Below, piece after piece: positions 617 to 59,840 of a stretch of DNA of 64,000 nucleotides; position 1 is the stretch's first letter, and every line of letters starts with the position of its first letter. Under the pieces are notes generated by a model. The model ran no database searches and was not told where the DNA came from. It saw only the letters and a program-made list of their open reading frames with translations. A program made the position numbers and the translations under genes. This DNA is from Paramacrobiotus metropolitanus (Eukaryota; Tardigrada; Eutardigrada; Parachela; Macrobiotidae): assembly GCF_019649055.1 (NCBI RefSeq), contig NW_026570259.1, positions 744,001 through 808,000 of the forward strand, in the 5' to 3' direction.

Positions 617-1192
617 TCACAATTTTTTTATTTTATCGCCTCTCACGACGGGATTATTCTTACGAATTTCTTCTGTTCCCAAAGAACGGTAATCAAACGG
701 GCATTTATGCGCATCATGATAACGATGTATGGCACAGAATAATCCGCCGCATCGGCATGTTACCCCAGTCAACCCCACACGCTTATTGCATTCTTTGCAC
801 CGATTGATCGATCGGCCTGGTCCTGTCCGAGACTCGTTACTGGATGACCGCGACGAGGCCTCTTTGTTATTGGGCGCGTCTATGGATTGGTTGATATTTT
901 CACTTTCTTCGCCGTTGGTTTCTAGCGGCATGAGATCAGGTGGTCGGACGGTTTCCGGGGTTTTATCCGGCGGTACATCGATAACAGGAGGTGCCACCGG
1001 AGGGTGTGTGGTAGCGTTGATATTCAGGCGATTGCGCGACGACCGCGCCGCCAAGGGAACGAAGGCGTTGACTGGTGGCGGTTGGGGGTGGTGGAGTTTG
1101 TAGCATTTGGAGCACATTCCGCCGTTGGACGGAGAGCCGAAGAAGCCGCAGCCATTAGTACAGAGGTTTGGCTGCTGGTCTTGGTTCTCCAT
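617..1192 (-). CDS. ZFAND5/6: A20/AN1 zinc-finger protein (ZFAND5/6 type)
   Basis: Complete intronless frame of 191 residues. Residues about 8-35 carry an A20-type zinc finger ([12 protein letters not shown] then MCSKCY: C-x3-C-x11-C-x2-C). Residues about 132-175 carry an AN1 finger ([31 protein letters not shown]) with the expected Cys/His ligands. The linker is rich in Pro, Ser and Asn. This A20-linker-AN1 order and the length match animal ZFAND5/ZFAND6, ubiquitin-binding proteins linked to proteasome function and stress responses. The visible sequence does not separate ZFAND5 from ZFAND6. It is head to head with LRRC34, about 300 bases apart, which suggests a shared promoter region. Confidence 0.9.
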
Positions 1193-18912: not shown

Positions 18913-19897
18913 TCAGAACATCACAGACAGCGCATTCCACCGCTGTATTTCAATACTAAGACGTTGCAACAAAAACTCGTATGATCGTTTTTCGCCAGAA
19001 GCATCCTTCAAGCGTTTTCCTAGCTCACGTAAAATTTCACAAGCTGGCCGCCGACGCCAAAAGTCTCGAAAGCTAAAGGACGAAGTCGTATTCCGGCGCC
19101 AGATATTCGTACTTTCGGAACTTTTCTTCTTCCGCTTTCCTGGCAGCTTCTCCGGCTTTGATGCTGCTGCTGATGACGTTAGACAAGGCCACGGTGTCAA
19201 CACATGTCACGTCCCAGGCGAGTCGTAGTCCGTTTCTCCAAGGCAACTGCGACACACCATCCGGCCGGCGATCATCCTCGTCGTTGGTCCCTCTCGGTTC
19301 CAGTACGGCCGGTATATTGGCGGTAACTAGGCTTCTCCGAATTATTTCGTTCAAGGAGGAGTGACGAAGAAAACGTCCAGCGCTCTTCTTACACGAAAGT
19401 CCATGGTGGCCGTATTGGTCGACAGGCAGACGGCAGTCAGCGCAAAAGTGGGGACTGCAAATTGGCGCGCCGACACGTAGTCGAACTGCTACACGGAAAC
19501 TCTCGTCTGACATCAACATTCCGAGTGAAGGTACAGGGAGGGCGTTAAGCCATTTGCCTGATTCCGGCCGCGCAACTGCAAGCAAACGCGCACAATGTGT
19601 AACATCATTTACATACAAGTTTGTGATATCTTCGCAAGCTTTTTTGACCACAGCGGCGTCCCACACTTTCTGCGTCTTTCGTTGGTTTTCTGACGGTAAT
19701 TCAGCACCCGATGCTGCTTGCCACAACCGGTGCACCAAGTCAAGGCTCTCCGTTCCAGGGGCGATGCTCGAAACTAGGGACGATGTGGCATAAACTAGGG
19801 ACACACCGTGTATGCCATTTAAGTATACACTGTGCTCCCGCATTGACTGCATAATTACTTCGAAATTCGAATTTATACACAAGAACAGTAGTGACAA
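18913..19897 (-). mobile_element. Dead retroelement fragment (C-terminal part of a reverse-transcriptase ORF)
   Basis: A 274-codon minus-strand frame (19897-19073) contains blocks I know from the C-terminal region of invertebrate retroelement polyproteins: GKWLNALPVPSLG, RVAVRLRVGAPIC, HHGLSCKKSAGRFLRHSSLN, PAVLEPRGTNDEDDRRPDGV and LAWDVTCVDTVALS. The E / RPDG / WDVTC spacing resembles a PD-(D/E)xK nuclease. The expected continuation (AFETFG, then ELGKRLKDASGEKRS and FLLQRLSIEIQRWNA) is present but shifted into two other frames, so at least two frameshifts separate the pieces. No reverse-transcriptase core lies upstream. It is a truncated, inactive copy inserted between two genes. The exact superfamily is not resolved. 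Confidence 0.75.
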
Positions 19898-31881: not shown

Positions 31882-34800
31882 TTACCAATCGCTAGCAGCA
31901 GAGAATGGTCCGGTTGGCGACGGAAGCGGTGCTGGTTGCGGATTCGCCGCTGGGGCTGCCTGGAATGGGTATTTAAAATATCCGTAAGGTAAATACATCG
32001 GAACGTCCGGCTTTGAATCAACTAATATGACAGTATTAGGCCATCGACTGTCTTCGACCACACTGCTTGGTGATCGCGATGTGGTCTTTTTCCGTTTTGT
32101 CGTTCTTTGCGTGGACAACTTGCTGTCATTTACGTTGGGGTGTGGTGTAATGGGAAGCGAAATTGACAGCTCCATGTAGGAGTTTAGCGGATCGACTGGA
32201 GTAAACGCAAACTGCAACAATTTTACGGTTTAACGTGTCCAAGTATCTGTAGGTAACGAAAATTGGCGCTGCTCACCCATTGTCCTGTAGTCAGACTGAG
32301 GTATGATGCATTATCTTTTAAGGGCGTAAAGGCGTCGCTTAAGTCTTCATTACAAGAGGCCTGCCTCCAGCACCAGCATTCAAAAGCGGGATATGCTTCC
32401 GCACCCACCATTACAGCATTCAGTCGTCTGCACAAGTACGTTTGATCCGCAGTAACGTTATTATATACTGCGCCTTGGAACTCGGGTGCGTAATCGGAGC
32501 ACCCCCTAGTTAGTCCCACGCCTGGAAAACAGTTGAATTATTTTCTGTTTCAACCTGCAATGCTTTAAGGTTGATTACCTGCAACATATGTCACCGAACA
32601 AGTCTTTGCTGGGCACTGGACATTCTCAGCCACGTCGTCGGCCAAGGAAAGATCATTGCATGTTGGAATTTCTAAGCATTGATAACAGGATGAAGCATTG
32701 GCTTCTAAATTTTGCGGCTTCTCAGAGGCAGATGATGCTGATGGACGTTTATCTGTTGGTGATGAGCTTGTGGGGCGCAAAATCAGGTCAGGCCATTTCA
32801 AAAGAGAATCAGGTGGTGTATGACCCGGAGCGCCAGGATATACTTCGCTACCGGCAGGTGAGGACACCGGTGCGGCAAGTGTTTCGAGTGACATTGCAGA
32901 TGAGTTAGACGAGCTGTCGAATGACGGATCGTAGCCAAACTGAATAATAATTATAATGATATAAGAAATAAACTAATATCAGCTTCACGATTCCAGGGCT
33001 GTTCTGTCTCGAAAGTTTCCACTTACCCACTGATTGTCTGGCATCGCGATGTAAGTTGGATCGCGGGTCAGTGCAACGAACGATGATTCTGGGTGGCCGT
33101 TGCAGTATGGATGATCGAAGCAGTGACATTCAAACGCTGTGTAAGTGTTGCCACTGAGCACAAGGATGCTCTGGAAACGTTTACATATGTATGGTAGACG
33201 TGTGGTAACGTTGCCGAATGGTACACCTTCTACACCGTAGGTGAGGAATGAACATTCTCGGGTGAGTCCAAAATCTGGTACGTCAAAATTTACAGTAGGT
33301 AATTACTGGAATTATTTGGGTGGTTGACATTACACTTGACCGACACTTTTACCTGCAATATACGTCACCGAGCAGCTTTTGGCGGCACAATGGCTGCGCT
33401 CCGCGGCAGCTGCAGCCGGATCCTGAAGATCATTGCACGCAGGGACAGTAACACAGCGGTGGCATTCGGCTGCGTTTCCTTGAAATAATGCAGCACTTGC
33501 GGTGACACTGCTGGACGGTGCAGCTGCGTTAGTCGAAGAGGAAAGCGACGGCAAATCGGTGGTTGAACCGACAGAGTTTCCTTCAACATCGGTGGAATGT
33601 GTGGCATTTGCCGGTGATGGCGTAATAAAAGGACCCAGAGGATCGTACCCGAACTAAAAACACAAAATAATTTAAGTTTTGCTTAGAACAGCTTTCACTT
33701 TGTTATACCCATTCATCCACAGGAAAGCCTTGATACATAGGTGCATTGACTAGATCCAAGAACGATGTCTCGGGATGGACGTTACAGTAAGCCTGATTAG
33801 AGCAATGGCACTCAAAGGCAACTTGGGCGTTCCCTGTGACCACTATCTCTTTTAGACGCTTGCACATGTAAGTGAGTCCGGTTGTAATATCACCAAAAGG
33901 CACATCTTCCATACCAGGATGGATATATGAGCAGTCTCGCGTCAACCCAACACCTGCGAAACACACGTTAAGACTGGTAGGATAGTACGAGGTACCGCAC
34001 ATGGCTACACCTTGTTTTACCTGGGAAATACGTAACCGAGCAGCTCCTAGCAGCACAACGCACAGTACTGCTTGCATTACCGGAGTGCAGAAGATCGCTG
34101 CACGTAGGAATACTCTGGCACCGGTAACATGTATCAGCGCTACCAACGTACGGAACCGACGGAAGCAGTGTGGCATAGTTTAGTCGCACTTTGGTGCTCC
34201 TTGTCCTACCCCTCGTCGTAGGCGGTGGAGAACGTGTTACTTCCCGGTGCGGCTCAAACCCAAACCACTGATCGGAAAGGAAATTCGTGTAGCCTAAGCG
34301 TTCTTTGCTTAAATCCAGGAAGGCGCTTTCCGGATGCGCATTGCAATACGTGTGATTGAAACAGTGGCACTCAAACGCCGATGCTTGATTACCGGAAATC
34401 ACGAGATCTTTCAGACGTCTGCAGAGGTATGCAGAAGAAGTGGTTACATCTCCAAACGGGGTGCCTTCCATCCCAGGAACAATGTATGAACAGTCCCGAG
34501 TCAGACCGACACCTGCGTAACAACAGATTTTGCAAAAAGATGCAAACTGGAAAACGATTATGTTCCACAAAGCGCGATGTGCGTTACCGACGATCCAGGT
34601 TACGGAACAGCTCTTTGCGACGCAAGCAGCAGTTACCGGAAGCGCCGATCCCAAGGTCAGCAGATTATCGCAAAAGGGGTCAGTCGCATCGATAGAGTTG
34701 GTGCATCGATAACATTGATCTGCTTCGCGCTTAAAGCCTCCAGGAGCAATCGACGTAGCATAATCCAGCACCTTGGTGGTACCGATGACCGGTATCTCAG

Positions 34801-36702
34801 TGATAGCGGTTGTGACTGGCGATTTTGAATCGGGTGTATTCGCTGTCGTGGTTGAACTTCCTTGTGTGAAAGGAGGCGACTGTGTCGGCAACCATGATCG
34901 TGGTGTGAAGCCAAACTAAAGGTTTAAACGCATTCGATAGCAAAAAGCATTCGGTCAATAGAAACAAATTTCTAACGAACCCACTCGTTCCATTCGACTG
35001 ATTGTACTGCTGGATTTTGCCACAAATAATCAAATGCTGCTGCAGGTTGTGAATTACAAAACCACCGATCGGAGCAATGACATTCGAAAATTGTAGCCAT
35101 GGATTGTCTGAGGGGATCGTAACGCTGTCGCTTGATACAGAGATAATCATGGGGTGTGCTGATGTTCCCGTAAGGAGCGATATTTGTGGTCGTACGCGAT
35201 GGGTCAGTCGAGCACCCACGAACGGTTTGTCCGTCTATATATGTACTGCTTACATCAACTGCATACTATTGTACATGTTTAAATTCCGCTTTAAATATTT
35301 TACAAATACAGTCTAGTCTGCTCACTGATCAAAACAAAATTTAAAATTACGTACCAACAGCCCAATATTCAACACGGCAGCTTTTGATCACGCATTCGAT
35401 CGGCTTTTGTATCACATGGCTTGCATGCAACAAATCGTTGCAGACCGATCGATTCAAACATTCGTAGCAAAAGTCGGCCTGTAGAGGTGGGAGAAAATCT
35501 GGAGGATTTCGGGAATAAGAGTTGGCTGGGGTGGTTGGATCAATAACTGCTTCCTCAAAGCCGTTAAAGATCGAGGTGGTCGCTTGTAATGGAAACGGCA
35601 TGTTGCGAGGATTATAGGCAAACTGTAGAACAATAACACAGTTAAACTGCCGCACTTGGATTAAACGCGGTTAAGATTCCGCAGAATACCCAAACATTGT
35701 CCGGATGAGCTGTAAAATTGAGATACTTGATTGTTGTTGCGCTGTCCTTATTGCAGCCATTAATCACACAATGGCAGGTGATGTATCGGACATTTGCTGC
35801 AGTCCATTTCTTGCAAAGATACCATGAATGATAATTGAACGTCTCAGGGATGGAATCCGGGATCACTATGGGACTTGTCGTATCACCGGCACATGAGCGC
35901 AAATGGCCTTCCGTTCCTGCGTTGAGAACATTTGTGACAGTGTTGAGTTACTGCTGTATAAAGTGAGGCTAACGTACTCTGTAAAGTAGAATCGTAGATT
36001 AAGAAAGCTTTACCGAGATTGGTAACGAAGTAGCGCGTCACGCTGCAACCTTGCAGGCAGTTAGACGTAAAGTTTACTCGAGGTGGTAGACGTCCCGATG
36101 TCGGATCTAGGCTAGCGTCGCACATGGAATCATGGTAGCGCGTGTGACACTTGTAGCACTGCGTGGGCACTGTCTGCCGGGCCGCCAAAGGCGTTTTAGC
36201 ATGGTCACTGGGCCAAAAATCCACCTGAAACATAGTAGCAGATTGGTTATACAAAACATGTTTCTTTTCACTTTCTCGACGAGGAATAAAACAATAAAAT
36301 TTCATACATAGCTGTTGGAGAGAGTGTTTTCTTGAACAAATGCCCTTTGCGCACTGTAGTTGCAATAAGACTTAGAGCAGTAACAGCGGGAACCGCCTTC
36401 AGAAAGTCGCTTGCAGCGGTACGGAGCCATGAATGCCACATGGGGCTCTTCTGATTTGTGGCAGGCGCGGCGAAAGGTGCCATCTGTTAAGCACAGGGTA
36501 AAACCGCGACAACGACTGGCAAGAGACACTATGACAATATTCGACGCACCGTGAGAAACCTCGATGCCGCAAACACCGCTGCAGCGTTGTGTTCGCGAAG
36601 TAAGAGAGCCGAAAAGGTCATCGTCGCAGCCTTTGGCAGCCGTGCCAGATATAAGCTCTTCTCTAGTATCGCAGATGTAGCACACGGTTTCATATCCATA
36701 TC
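31882..36702 (-). CDS. Seven-module ten-cysteine (Ly6/uPAR-like) extracellular protein
   Basis: Thirteen exons in transcript order: 36702-36308, 36224-36014, 35916-35690, 35622-35355, 35234-34981, 34915-34588, 34512-34021, 33953-33709, 33653-33353, 33274-33027, 32939-32579, 32521-32277, 32211-31882; about 1301 residues. Each module has ten cysteines: CxxC, C-N/D-L, C, K-S-C-S-V-T, then DCS, LC-K/R-R-L, CHC and CN. This is the Ly6/uPAR (three-finger) layout. Modules 2-7 are split by a phase-1 intron after the SVTY-AG block. Phase-0 introns separate modules (QW before FGY), except that modules 4b and 5a are fused in one exon. Ser/Thr/Pro-rich linkers, which could carry O-glycans, separate modules. 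The tail is Pro-rich without a membrane segment. The first exon needs one more upstream exon, presumably the signal peptide, which I could not place. Confidence 0.75.
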
Positions 36703-37920
36703 CTGTTCAAAATGCATGGCTGATTAATGCCATTTCACTTTGAAAATAGTGGGACGGCCAACAGAAAGCAGGGCAGCTGCACAAACACAAGTATCGTATT
36801 CGAAATTATCTAAATTACAACTTTCGTATTCGGGACAGCTCTTTGGTGCAAATACTCGTATAATCAACAGCAGGAATGCGATTTAGGTGACGGAAGCCAA
36901 CGTATAACACATTTCCAAACTGCTTTCGGTGGTCTTTGCTCGTTTAGACTAGCTTGATTTTATGGCATACAACCCGCTTACATTTAGAGGTCGCCAGGTT
37001 TTGTTCAAAAACCTTTCGTAAAGTGATTTCGTTTACAAGCAGCAGTGGAAATCTACAGTAACTTCTGCATCCTCATCTCAGCTTTCACTGCATGACTCAT
37101 GCAGCATGAGTATCGAGAAAGTATAGCAAGATTTAACAAAACCTGCTATCATACATATTTGTCTATGATTTTTAATGGAAATGATAAAGTAGAAAATAAA
37201 AAATAAAGAATAAAGAAAGTTTAAAAGATAATTCATAATTAGCTTTTCCATTTCAAACTTTAGGAAACTGAAAGTTTCCACGTGCTCTGGCTGTGCGCGT
37301 TTTTCGATTTACCAAAAACTGTTGTATCCGTCCAGTGAAACTGCACCAGAAAAATGGCGTATGAAAAAAGCCCTGCCGGTTTTGCTAACGAAACGACATA
37401 ATAAAAAAGAAAGTCAAACGGATGAAAGTGTTCAAGCAAGATTTCTGCACCTGTCTTAATTAAGATGAGCACCGAATAAAAAAACAAACAAAAGATGATC
37501 ATTGAATACGTACTGCTCAATTAAAGCAGATGGGCAAAATAGATAGATGAAACGATTGCGAGCCGCCAACCGCTAGTATGTAATCCAACCAATTACTGAA
37601 TAAGCAAAGAATAAGCAACCGTAAAAGTTTTTCAATACTTGATATTCTTTGTAAGTAAATAATACGTGCTTAGTTTAACTTATTTAGCGTGCCATTGCGA
37701 AAGCGTATGCTGTAATAAATTTTATGACAACAGATTTCGTCATTGCTCCACTATGATCCATACCCTCCCTGCGACTAGAGCGACATATTTACGTACTCGT
37801 ATCACATCTCACTGTAGCGAGCGAAAGCAGGCATTAGGTTGCTAAGCAAACGTTTAATGCGGAATTTGCTAGGTTTTTTCGTCGCCCTTTAATCAGACAT
37901 CTGCTTACAAAAAATTTACT
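36703..37920. other. Region upstream of the LU-array gene
   Basis: Should contain the missing first coding exon and promoter of the LU-array gene. A hydrophobic minus-strand stretch near 36860-36900 (reading IAFLLLIIRVFA) looks like a signal peptide but has an in-frame stop before it and no ATG. A hydrophobic 86-codon frame at 37260-37520 is not supported otherwise. Confidence 0.35.
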
Positions 37921-38062
37921 GATGCCGAATCTAGGCTAGCGTCGCACATGGAATCAAAATAGTGCGTGAGGCATTTGTATTTTGTAGCACTGTATATATG
38001 GGTAACGTTTCGCGGGACAGTAAAAGGCGATTTATCGTGGTCGTTGGGCCAGAAATGTGGGG
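37921..38062 (-). pseudogene. Decayed copy of an LU-module exon
   Basis: This stretch closely resembles the module-2 first-half exon at about 36095-36225. Shared words include CTAGGCTAGCGTCGCACATG (37931-37950), TGTAGCACTG, and the run toward GGCCA-AAAT. It has small insertions and substitutions, lacks the partner second-half exon and has no open frame across its length. It is best read as a partial duplication of the neighbouring gene that has decayed. Confidence 0.75.
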
Positions 38063-38544
38063 CACTGACGGCAATTGCTTTACCACCTGATATTACTTGT
38101 AGTATGATTGTGTTCTTTTACCCAATTGAGTAACTCCAGACATTTTTTATCACAAGAATTTTTTGTTTTATTTTTGCTTTACCTTTGCAAGCGTTGCAAG
38201 TTTGCTTGAGTTACTCAAAGTTGAGTGTATCATCCTAATGGACTTACCATACATGGACTTAGTTCCATTCAGCAATTTCAGTATTATATTTCACAGATGT
38301 CTAGCAGCCATAGTGAATTTAATAACAGTGTACTCTGTAGTTGCAGCAGCGCCAGCCACAGTGCAAAACTTACTTTATACATTGTTGAGTGCCACACGGT
38401 GACAGAGATATACCGGTATGCGGTCTAAACAATACTCAACATACAGTTCATTGTAAGGTGTGAACAATAAGGATAAAGGGAACTTTTCAGAATCCCTTTG
38501 CAAAACTGGCTTTAACTTACAGATGTCCAAATTAAGCCGCATTT
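38063..38544. other. Intergenic gap
   Basis: AT-rich spacer downstream of the protease gene. Nothing convincing seen. Confidence 0.4.
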
Positions 38545-46800: not shown

Positions 46801-49800
46801 CACGACATTTTTTTACGGCCATCCTTAGACGATGTAGTGCACCTTTCCGTTGTAGCCTATGTATTCGCAAAGGCTGTTTATACAATAATGACAAAATTTT
46901 TCCGTCATGCCCGTAGTTATCAGCATTTTCATTATTTTGTGCGGTGGCCTGTAGTAACTCGTAGTCTCGGACTCTCGGTTGTTTGCGTAGTTTTCGTTAG
47001 TCCCGGTAGTTTGTGTCGTTTTCGGTAATCTCGATAGTTTGGGTAGTTTTCAGTAGTCTCGGTAGTTTGCGTAGTTTTCTGTAGTCTCGGTAGTTTGCGT
47101 AGTCTTCGGTAGTCCCAGTAGTTTGTGTAGTTTCCTGTAGTCTCGGTAGTTTGTGCAGTCTTCATTGTAGTCTCATTGGTTGCGTAATTTTCGGTAGTCA
47201 CCAGTAGTCTCGGAAGCCTGTTTTTTTGAAGTTTCCTGTAACCCTAGTTCGTGTGGTTGCGTAGTCGCCTGTAGTTTTGTAGTTTTTGTGGCTCCCAGTA
47301 GTGTCGGTAGTCTTTGTAGTATACGTAGGCGCAAAACTACCAAGACTAAAACTACATAGCTCCAGACTGAGGAGAACTACAGAAACTACGCAAACTACCG
47401 AGACTACGAAACTCACTGGAAGCTACCTGAACTGAAACTCTAGCTTCACATAGCTTCAGACTACAGGAAACTACAGAAAACTACGCAAACTACCGAGACT
47501 ACAGGAAACTACAGCAAACTACGTAAACTACCGAGACTACAGGAAACTACAGAAACTGCAAACTACCAGAGACTACAAATAAACTACAGAAAACTACATG
47601 ACTTCGACACTACAGAAACTGCAATGACTACCAGGACTACAATAAACTACAGAAAACCCATGAGCTACGAGGACTACAGGAACACAATGAACTACCAGGA
47701 CTACAATAAACTACAGAAAACTACACCCAGCTACACTGCAGGAAACTGCATAAACTACCGAGACACAGAGCTACAGCCAGGCTACGTGAGCCACTGGGAC
47801 TACAGGAAACTACAGCAAACTACGCAAACTACCGAGACTACAGAGCTACAGCAAACTACGTAAACTACCGGGACTACAGGAATAACTACCGGGACTAAAG
47901 GAAACTACAGAAAACTGCACTACCAAGACTACGAGACACAGAAAACTTTAAACCTGAGACTACAAAAAACTACAGGTTACTGCCCAGACTAAGAGTGACT
48001 ACTAAGATTTTCGGAAGTCGACACACAGAATATGAAGTGTACAGGTTACTACGGTGGCTACTGGACTACGACGTGGAAGTGCGGTCATAAAAAACTGTTG
48101 TGTTCGAAGTGTGCCATATCTATAAACCTTTTGAGCAGATTATGTTGCTGATTTACCTCTTCTTTTTCCTTTTTCCGGACATCTAATTCATCTAAGAGAG
48201 CTTGCTTTTTATCACCACGCTTTTTTTCCTGTACAATAATAAGATATTATTACAAAATCCACTTCTGCTTTGTCATCAGATAATTGAAACAGAACAGAAC
48301 AGTCGCATTATTATGTGGTATATCCTGCATTTACCCAGTCGCGCTTCTTCATTGCGTAGCTGTTCAGTCGCTTTTCGTCACGCTTTTTTTTCTCTTGTGT
48401 CCAGTGAGCCTTCCATTTAGGATACTCTCTTTTTATGATACCGTCAGCTGATGCGGATGTCTTAATCAGCGCATCAGGGAATATTCCACGCTCTAGTAAG
48501 AACCGGGCATCTTCAGGGTACATCGGAAAGCCGTCGAACACCAGATTGTGTTCCCTAAATCAGTAGGTGTTAAAAACAATTGTGCCATACTTTCCTGGCG
48601 ATACCTACGCAAAAGGGCTTCCCTTCAACCACATATCAAACATTTCGGTCAGTACTTCAGTTGATAAACCCGTATCGCCAGAAAGGGCGTCAGCGTAGGC
48701 TTGTTCAGTGGCGGATAGTGGGATTGGGTTTTCTGGATCATCCTACAACGTATTTCATCACAGCTCACCTACAAAATTGTTATTGAAAAGACCCCCCTAA
48801 ATGGGCCATACCGAAAGAAATGGCAACTTGATCTTCTCACTCCTTCGGGTAATGCTTTATCGCGCTTTGGGACATCTGACGATCCCGGTAACGCTTGCTT
48901 TGGCAGTCTCCAGTATGGAGTTGGAGGATCTAAAGTATGCGTCTCCACCGGCGATTTCTGTAGTTTTGGTGTGCAGGCTTCGATCATAAAATTCCGAATG
49001 TTTATGACGAATGCATTTGTCATGTCGGCGATTTTGCGCGCGTGGGTGGTCTTTCCCGATCCCACAGCTCCCGTGACAAATATTCGCAATGGTGGCAACT
49101 GTGATACCATAAAGCACTTTACTGGTGAGTGATGACAAGAGAACAGGAAAAACACTAGCAAATACTTTGGGAGGTTGTAAATGTGGCAAATACATCTCCG
49201 GATCTTTGGTGAACTTCTCCTTGGCCTCTGGACTGCTAAAGTAACAGATTTTGTCCTTGTACATTGAAACCCCATTCTCCGCATTGCCCGGCCATAGTGT
49301 TTCCATTTCCTTTAGCGCCACTGGACAGTAGTTGGCTGTGTCGCCAATCGGCTTAGTTTTTTCAGAATTTTCGTCTGTTTTCTGCAACATATTGTTCAAC
49401 AAGCACTGCAATATGCAATGTGTTGTCGCTCTTTACTGTTTTTGCTGGCTTTGTCGTTCCATCTTCATTCTCTTCCTCCTCCTCTTCTTCGGGCTCCTCT
49501 TCCTCTTCTGGTGTTTCGTCATTGAAATCGTCAACCGAAAACCGGAATAATTCTATTAAGAAAACGTTTTAAGCAGCAATCAACCGACGACAATGTTTAT
49601 AAGGACTCACTCTCGTGGGAATCTATAACGATGTTCACCCAGTTGTCCGCGCTATCTCCAACCTGAAGGTCATGTATTCGTATCCCAGCGGCACTGCCAG
49701 CTTCTTTGAGCACAGCAATTTCCTTGTAGGCTTTGCGAAACGAGGCTTGCAGGTCTTCCCATTCTGGCTCCGTCAGTCCTAGAGTATTGCGGCCCAAGGG

Positions 49801-57117: not shown

Positions 57118-59840
57118 TCAGTCAACTGACATCTCATCATCATCTTTTCCCGGCGCACTGCCACTTCCGCCACCAGAACCAGGAGTCGAACTGTCCTGTC
57201 CGGTCTGTGCACCATTTCGCTGCATTGCGGCCACAAAAGCAGCAAAATCTACAAATTTAACTTTGTATTACATTACATATAAACGTTCACGAGGAGTTGT
57301 TTTGCTGCATTTGGGGGAAAATTTCAAACAAATACAGTGTACAAATGACAGCGTTAACGCATAATACAATGCTACACATACAATACAGTACAATGCTACG
57401 TACCGCCATTATTCGCAGCCTGCACAGCCTCGGCGCCCAAATTGAATTCTTGAATGAGAGGTCCTAACTGACGAGTTTCGAAAGCGGAAGTAAAAGCTTG
57501 AATAGCCTGCAAATTCACAACTGTTACATTACCAAGTACCAACACAAACAGTTATACAATGCACCGTTTATCTCCAGCTCACACTGCAATGTCATTTCCT
57601 TGAAATACTTTGTACCTGCTGAAATTGTGGGCTTTGGATAGTACTCATCACTTCCTGGGGAGTGTGCGGAATAAGTGGATCTTGCGGCAGATGTGGGACG
57701 AGACGATCGACGAAGTCCTTGTTGGATAACAGTGGCTGCAGTACAGTTCGGGTTAAGGCTGGCGTCCAATCGACCGGTGGCTGTTCTGCGGTAGCTGCAA
57801 ATACAATAAACATTAATATTAGTGATTCTCTTTATATTCGAAGCATTTACGGTACAACTACGACTTAACTACTAATGTACAACGTGCAAAGACACAAAAC
57901 GATTTTATTATAACTGCTAACTTTGGTATAACTGAATGAAAAACGAGTAGCAACAGTCGTCGTCAATCGTCATTAGACATCGTCTTGATCGGGAGCCACA
58001 ACGCTAACAGAGGGAATTTCCGGGATGGTTTCAGGGATGCCGAACGGTAACGGGCCCTTATTCTCCGCCCTTTCCCCGCGAATCAGCTCCAGTTCTTTGG
58101 CACGCAACTCCGCTTCCAGTCTCAACTTAGCCTCCTCCTGAGCCCTGATCACCGCTTCCTTCTTCCGCTCCTCTTCCAAAATATGCATCTGTATCGACCT
58201 CTCCCGCTCTTCTCGAATGCGGTTAACCTCATCTAATTCGGCTTGAATCTCGGTTTTCTCCTGCTGCAACTGTTGATCTAGATGGCTATTCAGGGCTTCC
58301 TGCTCTAGCCAGCGACCGAGGTATTCAATCGGGTCTTCGGGACGGAGCAGAAGCGTCTCCGCAATCCCCCGCACCAGAACATCTCCAATGTGCTCTTTCA
58401 TCCATTGGAAATTGGGGCGATATGCTTCATCGGATGGCGGCGCAGGCGTCTGGGCCGTCGGAGTCTCTTCCGGAAGATCCGTCAAAGAGACGGGCGACTC
58501 GAAATCTTCCGACTCGGAAGCCATTTTTTTACTTTTAAAAAAACGAGTCTCTATACTAGACACACTTCTTACGCCTTATTTGTTGCTTGGAAACTTACCA
58601 ACAGCTGCAATAAATTTTTGTGCATGTTCTTATAATTTCGAATTGACTTACGCTGCACCGATCCGAGAATATTTCGCAAATCAGCCAACTGGATCTTTCC
58701 TGCAGCCGATCCGCGAGCCCCTGCAGCACGTTGCGCAGCTGGTTTAGCCGGGGCTCCGGTGGGAGCAGCGGGACGAGAGGCGGCCGGTGTCGCACCAGCG
58801 CTCACTGCAGCGGGCGTCGGCGAGCTGGGCGACGCGGCTGATCCATTGCTGGCGGGTCCCCGCAGCCCCTGCAGCAATCCAGCCCCAGCGCCGCCACCTG
58901 CACCTCCCAGTCCGAGCATCTGCAGCAACTGGTTGCGATCCACGCCCTGCAGGAGATCCTGCAGAGAACTTTCGTCTACACAACAAAAGCAAATGAATTT
59001 AACTTCCGCTAATGCTTCCGTCCCATAAAACACTGGCATAGCAAATATACGCCTAATAACTGCTTCCGTATTCTTACCGATTCCCAAAGACTGCAGATCG
59101 GGAGCGATGTTCCCGCCTTCAGTGCCAGGAGTGCGCGGAGGCGTCTTTCCAGCCAGATAATCGCTCACTTTCTTGAAAAGCTCTTCGTCCTTCGATGCAT
59201 CAGGCTCCTGTTGGACCAATATTTGTCAAAGATTTTCGAAAAAGGATCTTATTCTCGAACTCTAAATGAAAACTGATTCGAATAGCATTTAGTGTACGTA
59301 CAATATTCAACATTAAGCGATACAGAAAATAAGACGGAAAATTCGCAGAAAACAATTACAGAAAAAAATAATAAAACAGAAACTTCCCAACAAAAATAAA
59401 TCGTCTAATGTATAATAAATAAAAAAAACAAATGCCATTTGGACCTTCGGAGGCAAAATTCGTACCTGCATCCAGTAGAACAATTTTCGACTGGACCCTT
59501 TGAACTTCAGGAGAAAAACCCGACCAGTGGTGCACTGAGGAATCTTTTTAAATTCGACCTCGTTGGGAAAAATGATCACGTCCTGGAAATAACGTTTTTT
59601 AGCGATTCAGACACCAGATTACGCTGCAACTATGGATGTTCGTACGTCTTCGGGCGTCGTTCCATTGCGCTCCTTCCAGTACAAGTGCAGAAGTTCGTCA
59701 TCGCCCTTGGTGATGTAGACCAGTCCTTTGCGCGGATCAGCGTGGACGGTAGTGCCTTCCAGCTTCATGCGACCAGCCTTAAATTCCACCAGATAGCGAT
59801 TGCTACCGCGCTGCTGAGCGGGACGTCCAAATAAAGCCAT
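57118..59840 (-). CDS. ADRM1: Proteasomal ubiquitin receptor ADRM1 (Rpn13)
   Basis: Seven exons in transcript order: 59840-59646, 59582-59466, 59207-59078, 58975-58652, 57794-57616, 57506-57404, 57248-57118, phases exact, giving 392 residues (human 407). Residues about 15-110 form the Pru domain ([70 protein letters not shown]), which binds ubiquitin and Rpn2 in the 26S proteasome. A Gly/Ala/Pro-rich linker follows. The C-terminal DEUBAD domain ([50 protein letters not shown]) recruits the deubiquitinase UCH37. The chain ends in DDDEMSVD, close to the known acidic tail. The 857-base intron 57795-58651 contains another whole gene on the same strand. Confidence 0.95.
57973..58524 (-). CDS. DPY30-motif protein, DYDC1-like, nested in an ADRM1 intron
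   Basis: Single-exon frame of 183 residues from ATG 58524; an in-frame extension upstream lacks an ATG. Residues about 40-70 hold a DPY30-type dimerisation motif ([20 protein letters not shown] then PIEYLGRWL). This is the pattern seen in DYDC1 and DYDC2 (RP-x-DPIEYLA-x-W). A charged helix of about 90 residues follows ([18 protein letters not shown]), again as in DYDC1, then a Pro-rich end. DYDC proteins are linked to sperm acrosome and cilium biology; DPY30 motifs dock on radial-spoke or AKAP-like partners. The whole gene lies in intron 4 of ADRM1 on the same strand. Alternative: another DPY30-domain protein. Confidence 0.8.
   Translation of the reverse strand: MASESEDFESPVSLTDLPEETPTAQTPAPPSDEAYRPNFQWMKEHIGDVLVRGIAETLLLRPEDPIEYLGRWLEQEALNSHLDQQLQQEKTEIQAELDEVNRIREERERSIQMHILEEERKKEAVIRAQEEAKLRLEAELRAKELELIRGERAENKGPLPFGIPETIPEIPSVSVVAPDQDDV

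What the first reader, a model, noticed from the sequence alone, without database searches (positions are those of the whole stretch)
31882..36702. A seven-module Ly6/uPAR-like array protein built by a strict exon rule
Every module shows the same ten-cysteine pattern. Modules 2-7 are each encoded by a pair of exons: first half ends in KSCSVTY-AG at a phase-1 intron, second half starts GLTRDCS, runs to CHC..CN and ends QW at a phase-0 intron before FGY. Most Ly6/uPAR proteins have one to three domains; seven with long Ser/Thr/Pro linkers, no visible anchor and a Pro-rich tail is unusual. This looks like serial duplication of a two-exon cassette, and I know of no described protein of this form.
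Basis: partly seen in the sequence, partly recalled or inferred. Interest (0 to 1): 0.75.

Follow-up and report, generated by a model that had tools for sequence, protein, structure and literature searches.

The report
Seven-domain Ly6/uPAR-like array gene
A probable insect gene encodes a long, apparently secreted protein of seven small cysteine-rich Ly6-type domains joined by Ser/Thr/Pro-rich linkers; it looks like an uncharacterised member of a known family whose two-exon building rule was already described, with some unusual details.

Summary
On the minus strand, 13 coding exons (36702-31882) join in frame into about 1,300 residues: seven cysteine modules, Ser/Thr/Pro-rich linkers and a Pro-rich tail without a hydrophobic end. 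All six introns inside modules 2-7 are phase 1; six of seven module boundaries carry a phase-0 intron. Two details fail: 4b and 5a share one exon, and module 1 has twelve cysteines in one exon. Third-position-biased differences show constrained coding. Ly6/uPAR (LU) membership is likely, not proven: cysteine order ending in CN, one module matching Pfam QVR at E about 0.001 but below its cut-off, and a phase-1 intron placed as in 4 of 7 Ly6-like genes examined in this genome. Structure prediction failed (pLDDT 44 and 34). A second gene on contig C13, with two modules, follows the same exon plan and also lacks a hydrophobic end, so this is a small family. A review already describes the two-exon LU set and Drosophila proteins with 2 to 44 LU domains. 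Unusual here: phase-0 boundaries, linkers inside the cassette and no GPI-like end. Best reading: a secreted multivalent binder; that function is inferred.

The parts
36308..36702 (-). Module 1, single exon, 12 Cys; phase-1 acceptor side, phase-0 donor
36014..36224 (-). Exon 2a (short linker + first half of module 2)
   Evidence: joined M2 matches Pfam QVR at 20.6 bits, cut-off 27.3
35690..35916 (-). Exon 2b (second half of module 2)
35355..35622 (-). Exon 3a (linker + first half of module 3)
34981..35234 (-). Exon 3b (second half of module 3); acceptor chosen by me between two in-frame phase-1 sites seen
34588..34915 (-). Exon 4a (S/T/P-rich linker + first half of module 4)
34021..34512 (-). 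Fused exon 4b+5a: second half of module 4, linker, first half of module 5; boundary intron absent
33709..33953 (-). Exon 5b (second half of module 5)
33353..33653 (-). Exon 6a (S/T/P/A-rich linker + first half of module 6)
33027..33274 (-). Exon 6b (second half of module 6)
32579..32939 (-). Exon 7a (longest linker + first half of module 7)
32277..32521 (-). Exon 7b (second half of module 7)
31882..32211 (-). C-terminal tail exon, no Cys, Pro-rich end, stop TAA, no hydrophobic C-terminal segment
37908..38117 (-). Open frame holding a degenerate partial copy of exon 2a upstream of the gene (protein match 38054-37920); first Cys replaced, truncated
38334..38382 (-). Weak candidate signal-peptide exon (MYKVSFALWLALLQLQ), poor donor site; unproven

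Best explanation
The locus is one gene for a secreted, unanchored protein of seven Ly6/uPAR (LU) three-finger domains strung on Ser/Thr/Pro-rich, probably O-glycosylated linkers. It arose by repeated duplication of a frame-neutral (0-0) two-exon cassette (linker plus first half; second half), from an ancestor shared with a two-module paralog on contig C13. One boundary intron was later lost, and a partial copy of exon 2a was left upstream. It most likely acts as an extended, multivalent extracellular binding protein (matrix, cuticle, junction or mucus type). Shown: exon architecture, homology of the modules, the paralog. Supported but not proven: LU membership. Inferred: one transcript, secretion (from the paralog), glycosylation, intron loss rather than gain elsewhere, the direction of evolution, and multivalent binding.
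For: In-frame 13-exon model with consistent phases. Modules homologous, M4-M5 56% identical over the alignment and E 4.5e-31 over one half. High synonymous and restrained nonsynonymous change. Nine cysteine columns and the Asn after the last are invariant in the seven modules plus the paralog's two; the fourth cysteine is present but offset in the alignment. M2 matches QVR at 20.6 bits, E 0.00094. Profile comparison with six LU-like sequences of this genome scores 20.5 (P 0.0059) over 83 columns, against 8.8-13.2 over 6-9 columns for one reversed and five column-shuffled controls. A phase-1 intron placed shortly before the sixth cysteine also in 4 of 7 Ly6-like genes examined. C13 paralog with two modules, boundary phase 0, in-module phase 1 and no hydrophobic end. 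Linker S+T+P 31-43% before M2-M7.
Against: No module reaches Pfam's QVR cut-off, and at E<=10 only 3 of the 9 aligned modules match it at all; the whole joined protein matched nothing at E<=1. In 3 of 7 Ly6-like genes I could not find a phase-1 junction: one pairing ran into a stop, one had no phase-1 donor and only a phase-0 one, one had donors of phase 0 and 2 only; in L017 phase-2 pairs were also possible. hhalign's own probability is 6.3%, and without M2 it is 2.3% with P 0.021. PF00021 found nothing in the genome, though its controls did not ring either. Both AlphaFold2 models have very low confidence, and none of the 50 listed (of 138) Foldseek matches is a three-finger protein. No PDB relative by sequence. 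No convincing signal-peptide exon for this gene. The tree pairs M2 with the paralog's M1 (85/87, long branches), which does not fit the simplest module correspondence. No transcript data.
Confidence: 0.7

Rival explanations
1. Two or more separate genes: for example M1 (which lacks the in-module intron and has 12 Cys), alone or with M2, is one gene and the M3-M7 array another.
For: M1 and M2 are divergent from M3-M7 (20-26% identity); no RNA data. I scanned for signal peptides only upstream of M1, so a start further in was not excluded.
Against: M1 joins in frame to 2a across a phase-0 intron. The C13 paralog has the same plan: a single-exon first module joined by a phase-0 intron to a two-exon module.
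Confidence: 0.13
2. The modules are a cysteine-rich repeat family unrelated to Ly6/uPAR that converged on ten cysteines.
For: Profile scores are weak and below Pfam's cut-off; structure models failed.
Against: Cysteine order, CN end, phase-1 intron before the sixth cysteine as in 4 of 7 Ly6-like genes examined, and a nearly full-length profile alignment above all six controls.
Confidence: 0.1
3. The protein is anchored in the membrane through an unrecognised 3' exon and works at the cell surface like other insect Ly6 proteins.
For: The review says that the 45 Drosophila LU genes are all predicted to encode GPI-anchored proteins (PMC6600238, passage).
Against: The tail exon ends at a stop and its last 40 residues have no hydrophobic stretch (best 12-residue mean 0.16, against 2.0-3.4 at the ends of eight Ly6-like frames of this genome); the C13 paralog's end also scores lower (1.19). 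I did not search systematically for a further 3' exon.
Confidence: 0.13

Closest known systems
Multi-LU-domain proteins (uPAR/PLAUR with three LU domains, C4.4A/LYPD3 with two; Drosophila proteins with 2 to 44 LU domains as stated in PMC6600238)
   Same: Tandem LU domains; a two-exon set repeated per domain
   Different: Here boundary introns are phase 0 rather than mostly phase 1; long S/T/P linkers lie inside the cassette; no GPI-like end; the first module has extra rather than missing cysteines. Which Drosophila genes are meant, and whether one is an ortholog, could not be checked
Insect quiver/sleepless-type Ly6 (Pfam PF17064 QVR)
   Same: Cysteine order, C-x-C near the end, CN end, phase-1 in-module intron in 4 of 7 genes examined here
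   Different: In the stretches read, those of this genome look single-domain and eight frames end in a hydrophobic segment; the array modules score below the Pfam cut-off
C13 paralog in the same genome (G000:C13:1515424-1512976, minus strand)
   Same: Single-exon first module, then a two-exon module, phase 1 inside and phase 0 at boundaries, EW|F junctions, unanchored tail
   Different: Two modules instead of seven; a signal-peptide-like start in the same exon as module 1; one almost pure Thr/Pro linker

Membership tests
Ly6/uPAR (LU) superfamily | Ten cysteines in the stereotyped order, Asn after the tenth | tested here: met
   M2-M7 have exactly ten ending in CN; M1 has twelve, ending in CN, and aligns with the ten. 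Disulfide pairing itself not tested
Ly6/uPAR (LU) superfamily | Two-exon set with the intron at the tip of loop 2 (between Cys5 and Cys6) | tested here: met
   6 of 6 for M2-M7; M1 has no such intron. Similar site and phase in 4 of 7 Ly6-like genes examined, 3 not resolved as phase 1. That the site is the loop-2 tip here is taken from the review, not from a structure
Ly6/uPAR (LU) superfamily | Exon set generally flanked by phase-1 introns | tested here: not met
   boundary introns are phase 0, 6 of 6 here and 2 of 2 in C13. The intron before M1 is phase 1. The source says 'generally' and 'mostly', so this is a typical, not a strict, feature
Ly6/uPAR (LU) superfamily | Three-finger fold | tested here: inconclusive
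   mean pLDDT 43.9 and 33.6; no match with E<=0.001
Ly6/uPAR (LU) superfamily | Match to a curated profile above its cut-off | tested here: not met
   best is QVR at 20.6 bits for M2 against a cut-off of 27.3; not a defining feature of the superfamily but a usual sign of it
Insect GPI-anchored Ly6 proteins | Hydrophobic C-terminal GPI signal | tested here: not met
   best 12-residue hydropathy in the last 40 residues is 0.16 here and 1.19 in C13, against 2.0-3.4 at the ends of eight Ly6-like frames; no GPI predictor was run
Ly6/uPAR (LU) superfamily | N-terminal signal peptide | tested here: inconclusive
   only weak candidates upstream. The C13 paralog begins with a hydrophobic stretch (2.07 over 12 residues) judged a signal peptide by eye

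The most novel reading that the evidence does not exclude
A distinct secreted branch of insect multi-LU proteins in which the duplicating unit is a 0-0 cassette that carries its own mucin-like linker. Copy number can then grow without frame or spacing constraints, giving soluble 'beads on a string' of three-finger domains (two in one gene, seven in this one).
Probability: 0.35. Interest if true: 0.5.

Novelty: new member of a known kind. Interest (0 to 1): 0.32.

Why it matters
LU domains are mostly single and often membrane-tethered. A soluble array with built-in linkers, together with a two-module sister gene in the same genome, would give a clean pair for studying how a domain family moves from few to many copies and from anchored to secreted. 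The function of this array is unknown.

Tried and rejected
PF00021 in the own genome: nothing, and its controls did not ring, so uninformative. AlphaFold2 on module 4 (an open frame that includes the in-frame intron, aligned with modules 3, 6 and 7 read through their introns) and on module 1 alone: very low confidence. PDB by sequence: one unrelated hit at E 1.7 with module 4, none with the profile. Alignments of half-modules, A2 and A3, were misaligned and dropped; A1 was not used further, and its C13 row begins with two intron-encoded letters. Tree of nine modules: no well-supported branch, long branches; it pairs M2 with the paralog's M1, which I do not use. The four QVR hits at C36:1137-1143 kb were checked as a possible second array: all four frames end in a hydrophobic segment, like separate short Ly6 genes. 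Weak hits elsewhere were set aside: C65 and C4 (E 0.33 and 2.77), C36:660 kb (E 0.146; read as a single-exon cysteine-rich frame) and C114 (E 1.39). Two further similarities were set aside: a 24-residue Pro/Ala-rich match of the tail at 58864-58932 and a 24-nt DNA match. A Drosophila gene name recalled by me (CG13492) was searched; the listing showed nothing on LU domains. Papers: PMC6600238 in passages and sections 4 and 16; PMC3058042 and PMC8914287 in passages; all others only as search listings; PMC4476152 is not held. No description of this protein was seen in the listings of searches, which cover open-licence papers only. The species was not identified; 'insect, probably dipteran' is my inference from short introns and Ly6 content, not a call result. 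No collection of other animal genomes was available, so orthologs were not sought.

Hydropathy was measured. Confidence went from 0.72 to 0.70, and the separate-genes rival from 0.12 to 0.13, because of the unresolved cases and the limited signal-peptide scan.

Full report
Check. Splicing the minus strand by GT-AG sites gives 13 coding exons from 36702 to 31882, all in frame, 1,301 residues. The first residue rests on an assumed base, because the upstream exon is unknown. The finding's coordinates are the first base of the module-1 exon and the last base of the stop codon. In-module introns of M2-M7 are phase 1 in 6 of 6. Boundary introns are phase 0 in 6 of 7 boundaries. The 4|5 boundary has none: the sequence runs ...SDQW FGFEP... 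inside one exon, exactly where the other copies are cut, so a precise intron loss is the simplest account (inference). M3-M7 have ten cysteines with similar spacing, M2 ten with different spacing, M1 twelve and no in-module intron. The acceptor of 3b was chosen between two possible sites visible.

Reality of coding. The search with M4 matches the second half of M5 at E 4.5e-31. M4, M5 and M6 are 48-56% identical. Their codons differ at position three about twice as often as at one or two; pS is 0.79-0.89 and pN 0.30-0.33. The duplications are therefore old and the protein is constrained. A degenerate partial copy of exon 2a lies upstream (protein match 38054-37920, 51% over 45 columns; 53%). 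Read, it has lost the first cysteine and is truncated.

What it is. Alignment of the seven modules and the paralog's two gives nine invariant cysteine columns and an invariant Asn after the last; the fourth cysteine is there but offset by gaps. Pfam QVR, the quiver-type u-PAR/Ly-6 domain, matches M2 at 20.6 bits (E 0.00094, cut-off 27.3) and M1 at 13 bits (E 0.21); M4, M6 and the whole protein gave no QVR match at E<=1. At E<=10, 3 of 9 modules match it. The genome has 55 QVR matches at E<=10, two over the cut-off; 34 of the 55 cover only one side of the profile, up to position 47 or from position 42, as split exons would (counted). I examined seven Ly6-like genes. In four (L014, L017, L021, L022) the halves join at a phase-1 intron 4 to 9 residues before the sixth cysteine, although in L017 phase-2 pairs were possible too. 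In three no phase-1 junction was established: a stop in one L020 gene, no phase-1 donor in the other L020 gene and in L018. Profile comparison with six such sequences, one of them a fragment, scores 20.5 (P 0.0059, probability 6.3%), against 8.8-13.2 for six reversed or shuffled controls; without M2 it scores 17.7 (P 0.021). Together this supports LU membership. It is not proved by fold: both models were of very low confidence and the structure search gave nothing at E<=0.001.

Relatives. One other gene of the same plan was found, on C13, minus strand, 1515424-1512976. It has a signal-peptide-like start plus a single-exon ten-cysteine module, donor GAATGG|GTATGT phase 0, a Thr/Pro linker plus half-module, a phase-1 intron, the second half, GAATGG|GTAAGC phase 0, then a tail FGFEP.... 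Of the window's modules its second module is closest to M5 (41%) and least like M2 and M1 (22%, 24%). The simplest history is a two-module ancestor whose second module multiplied here. The tree had no well-supported branch and paired M2 with the paralog's M1, so it neither tests nor backs this. Searches with M4, with M1 plus M2, with M3, with M7 and with each of the paralog's modules found no further member at E below 0.1. M5 and M6 were not used as queries, and the tool warns that a missing match does not show absence.

How it works. Shown: a seven-module array with linkers of 31-43% S+T+P before M2-M7, 14 N-glycosylation sequons counted within modules and tail, and a C-terminus whose last 40 residues reach a mean hydropathy of only 0.16 over 12 residues, against 2.0-3.4 at the ends of eight Ly6-like frames of this genome; the C13 end reaches 1.19. 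Inferred: a single transcript; secretion (from the paralog's start; this gene's own signal-peptide exon was not found); O-glycosylation; and multivalent binding of partners by three-finger modules. Ly6 domains are described as protein-protein interaction domains, and insect members act in septate junctions, chitin matrix and sleep or excitability (PMC3058042 and PMC6600238, passages).

Against what is known. The review PMC6600238 states that LU genes typically have a signal-sequence exon and two exons for the domain, generally flanked by phase-1 introns, with the dividing intron at the tip of loop 2. It adds that several human multi-LU genes preserve this structure for each added domain, and that a few Drosophila proteins hold 2 to 44 LU domains. 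So the exon rule and multi-domain arrays are known. Departures here are phase-0 boundaries, linkers inside the cassette, the missing hydrophobic end and a twelve-cysteine first module; a Ly6 domain with 12 invariant cysteines is itself known, in Coiled (PMC3058042). I could not check orthologs in other insects.

Verdict.

Noticed in passing
37908-38117 (-): Degenerate partial copy of exon 2a upstream of the gene, 85% DNA identity over 59 nt, truncated and without its first cysteine.
   Followed up: partly
34513-34587 (-): The 75-nt intron between 4a and 4b is in frame and free of stops, so its retention would only insert residues between Cys5 and Cys6.
   Followed up: no
48860-49411 (-): Open frame with a FAP206 match and a weak YHS match below its cut-off.
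   Followed up: no
620-1192 (-): Open frame with A20-type and AN1-type zinc fingers.
   Followed up: no
19076-19897 (-): Open frame that looks to me like part of a non-LTR retrotransposon protein (recalled resemblance); no Pfam match at E<=0.001.
   Followed up: no
L020 (G000:C36:1135500-1144500): Cluster of short Ly6-like frames; four of them end in hydrophobic segments.
   Followed up: partly
L031:906-1619 (+): Single-exon cysteine-rich frame with CFC..YCNN, a possible distant LU domain.
   Followed up: no
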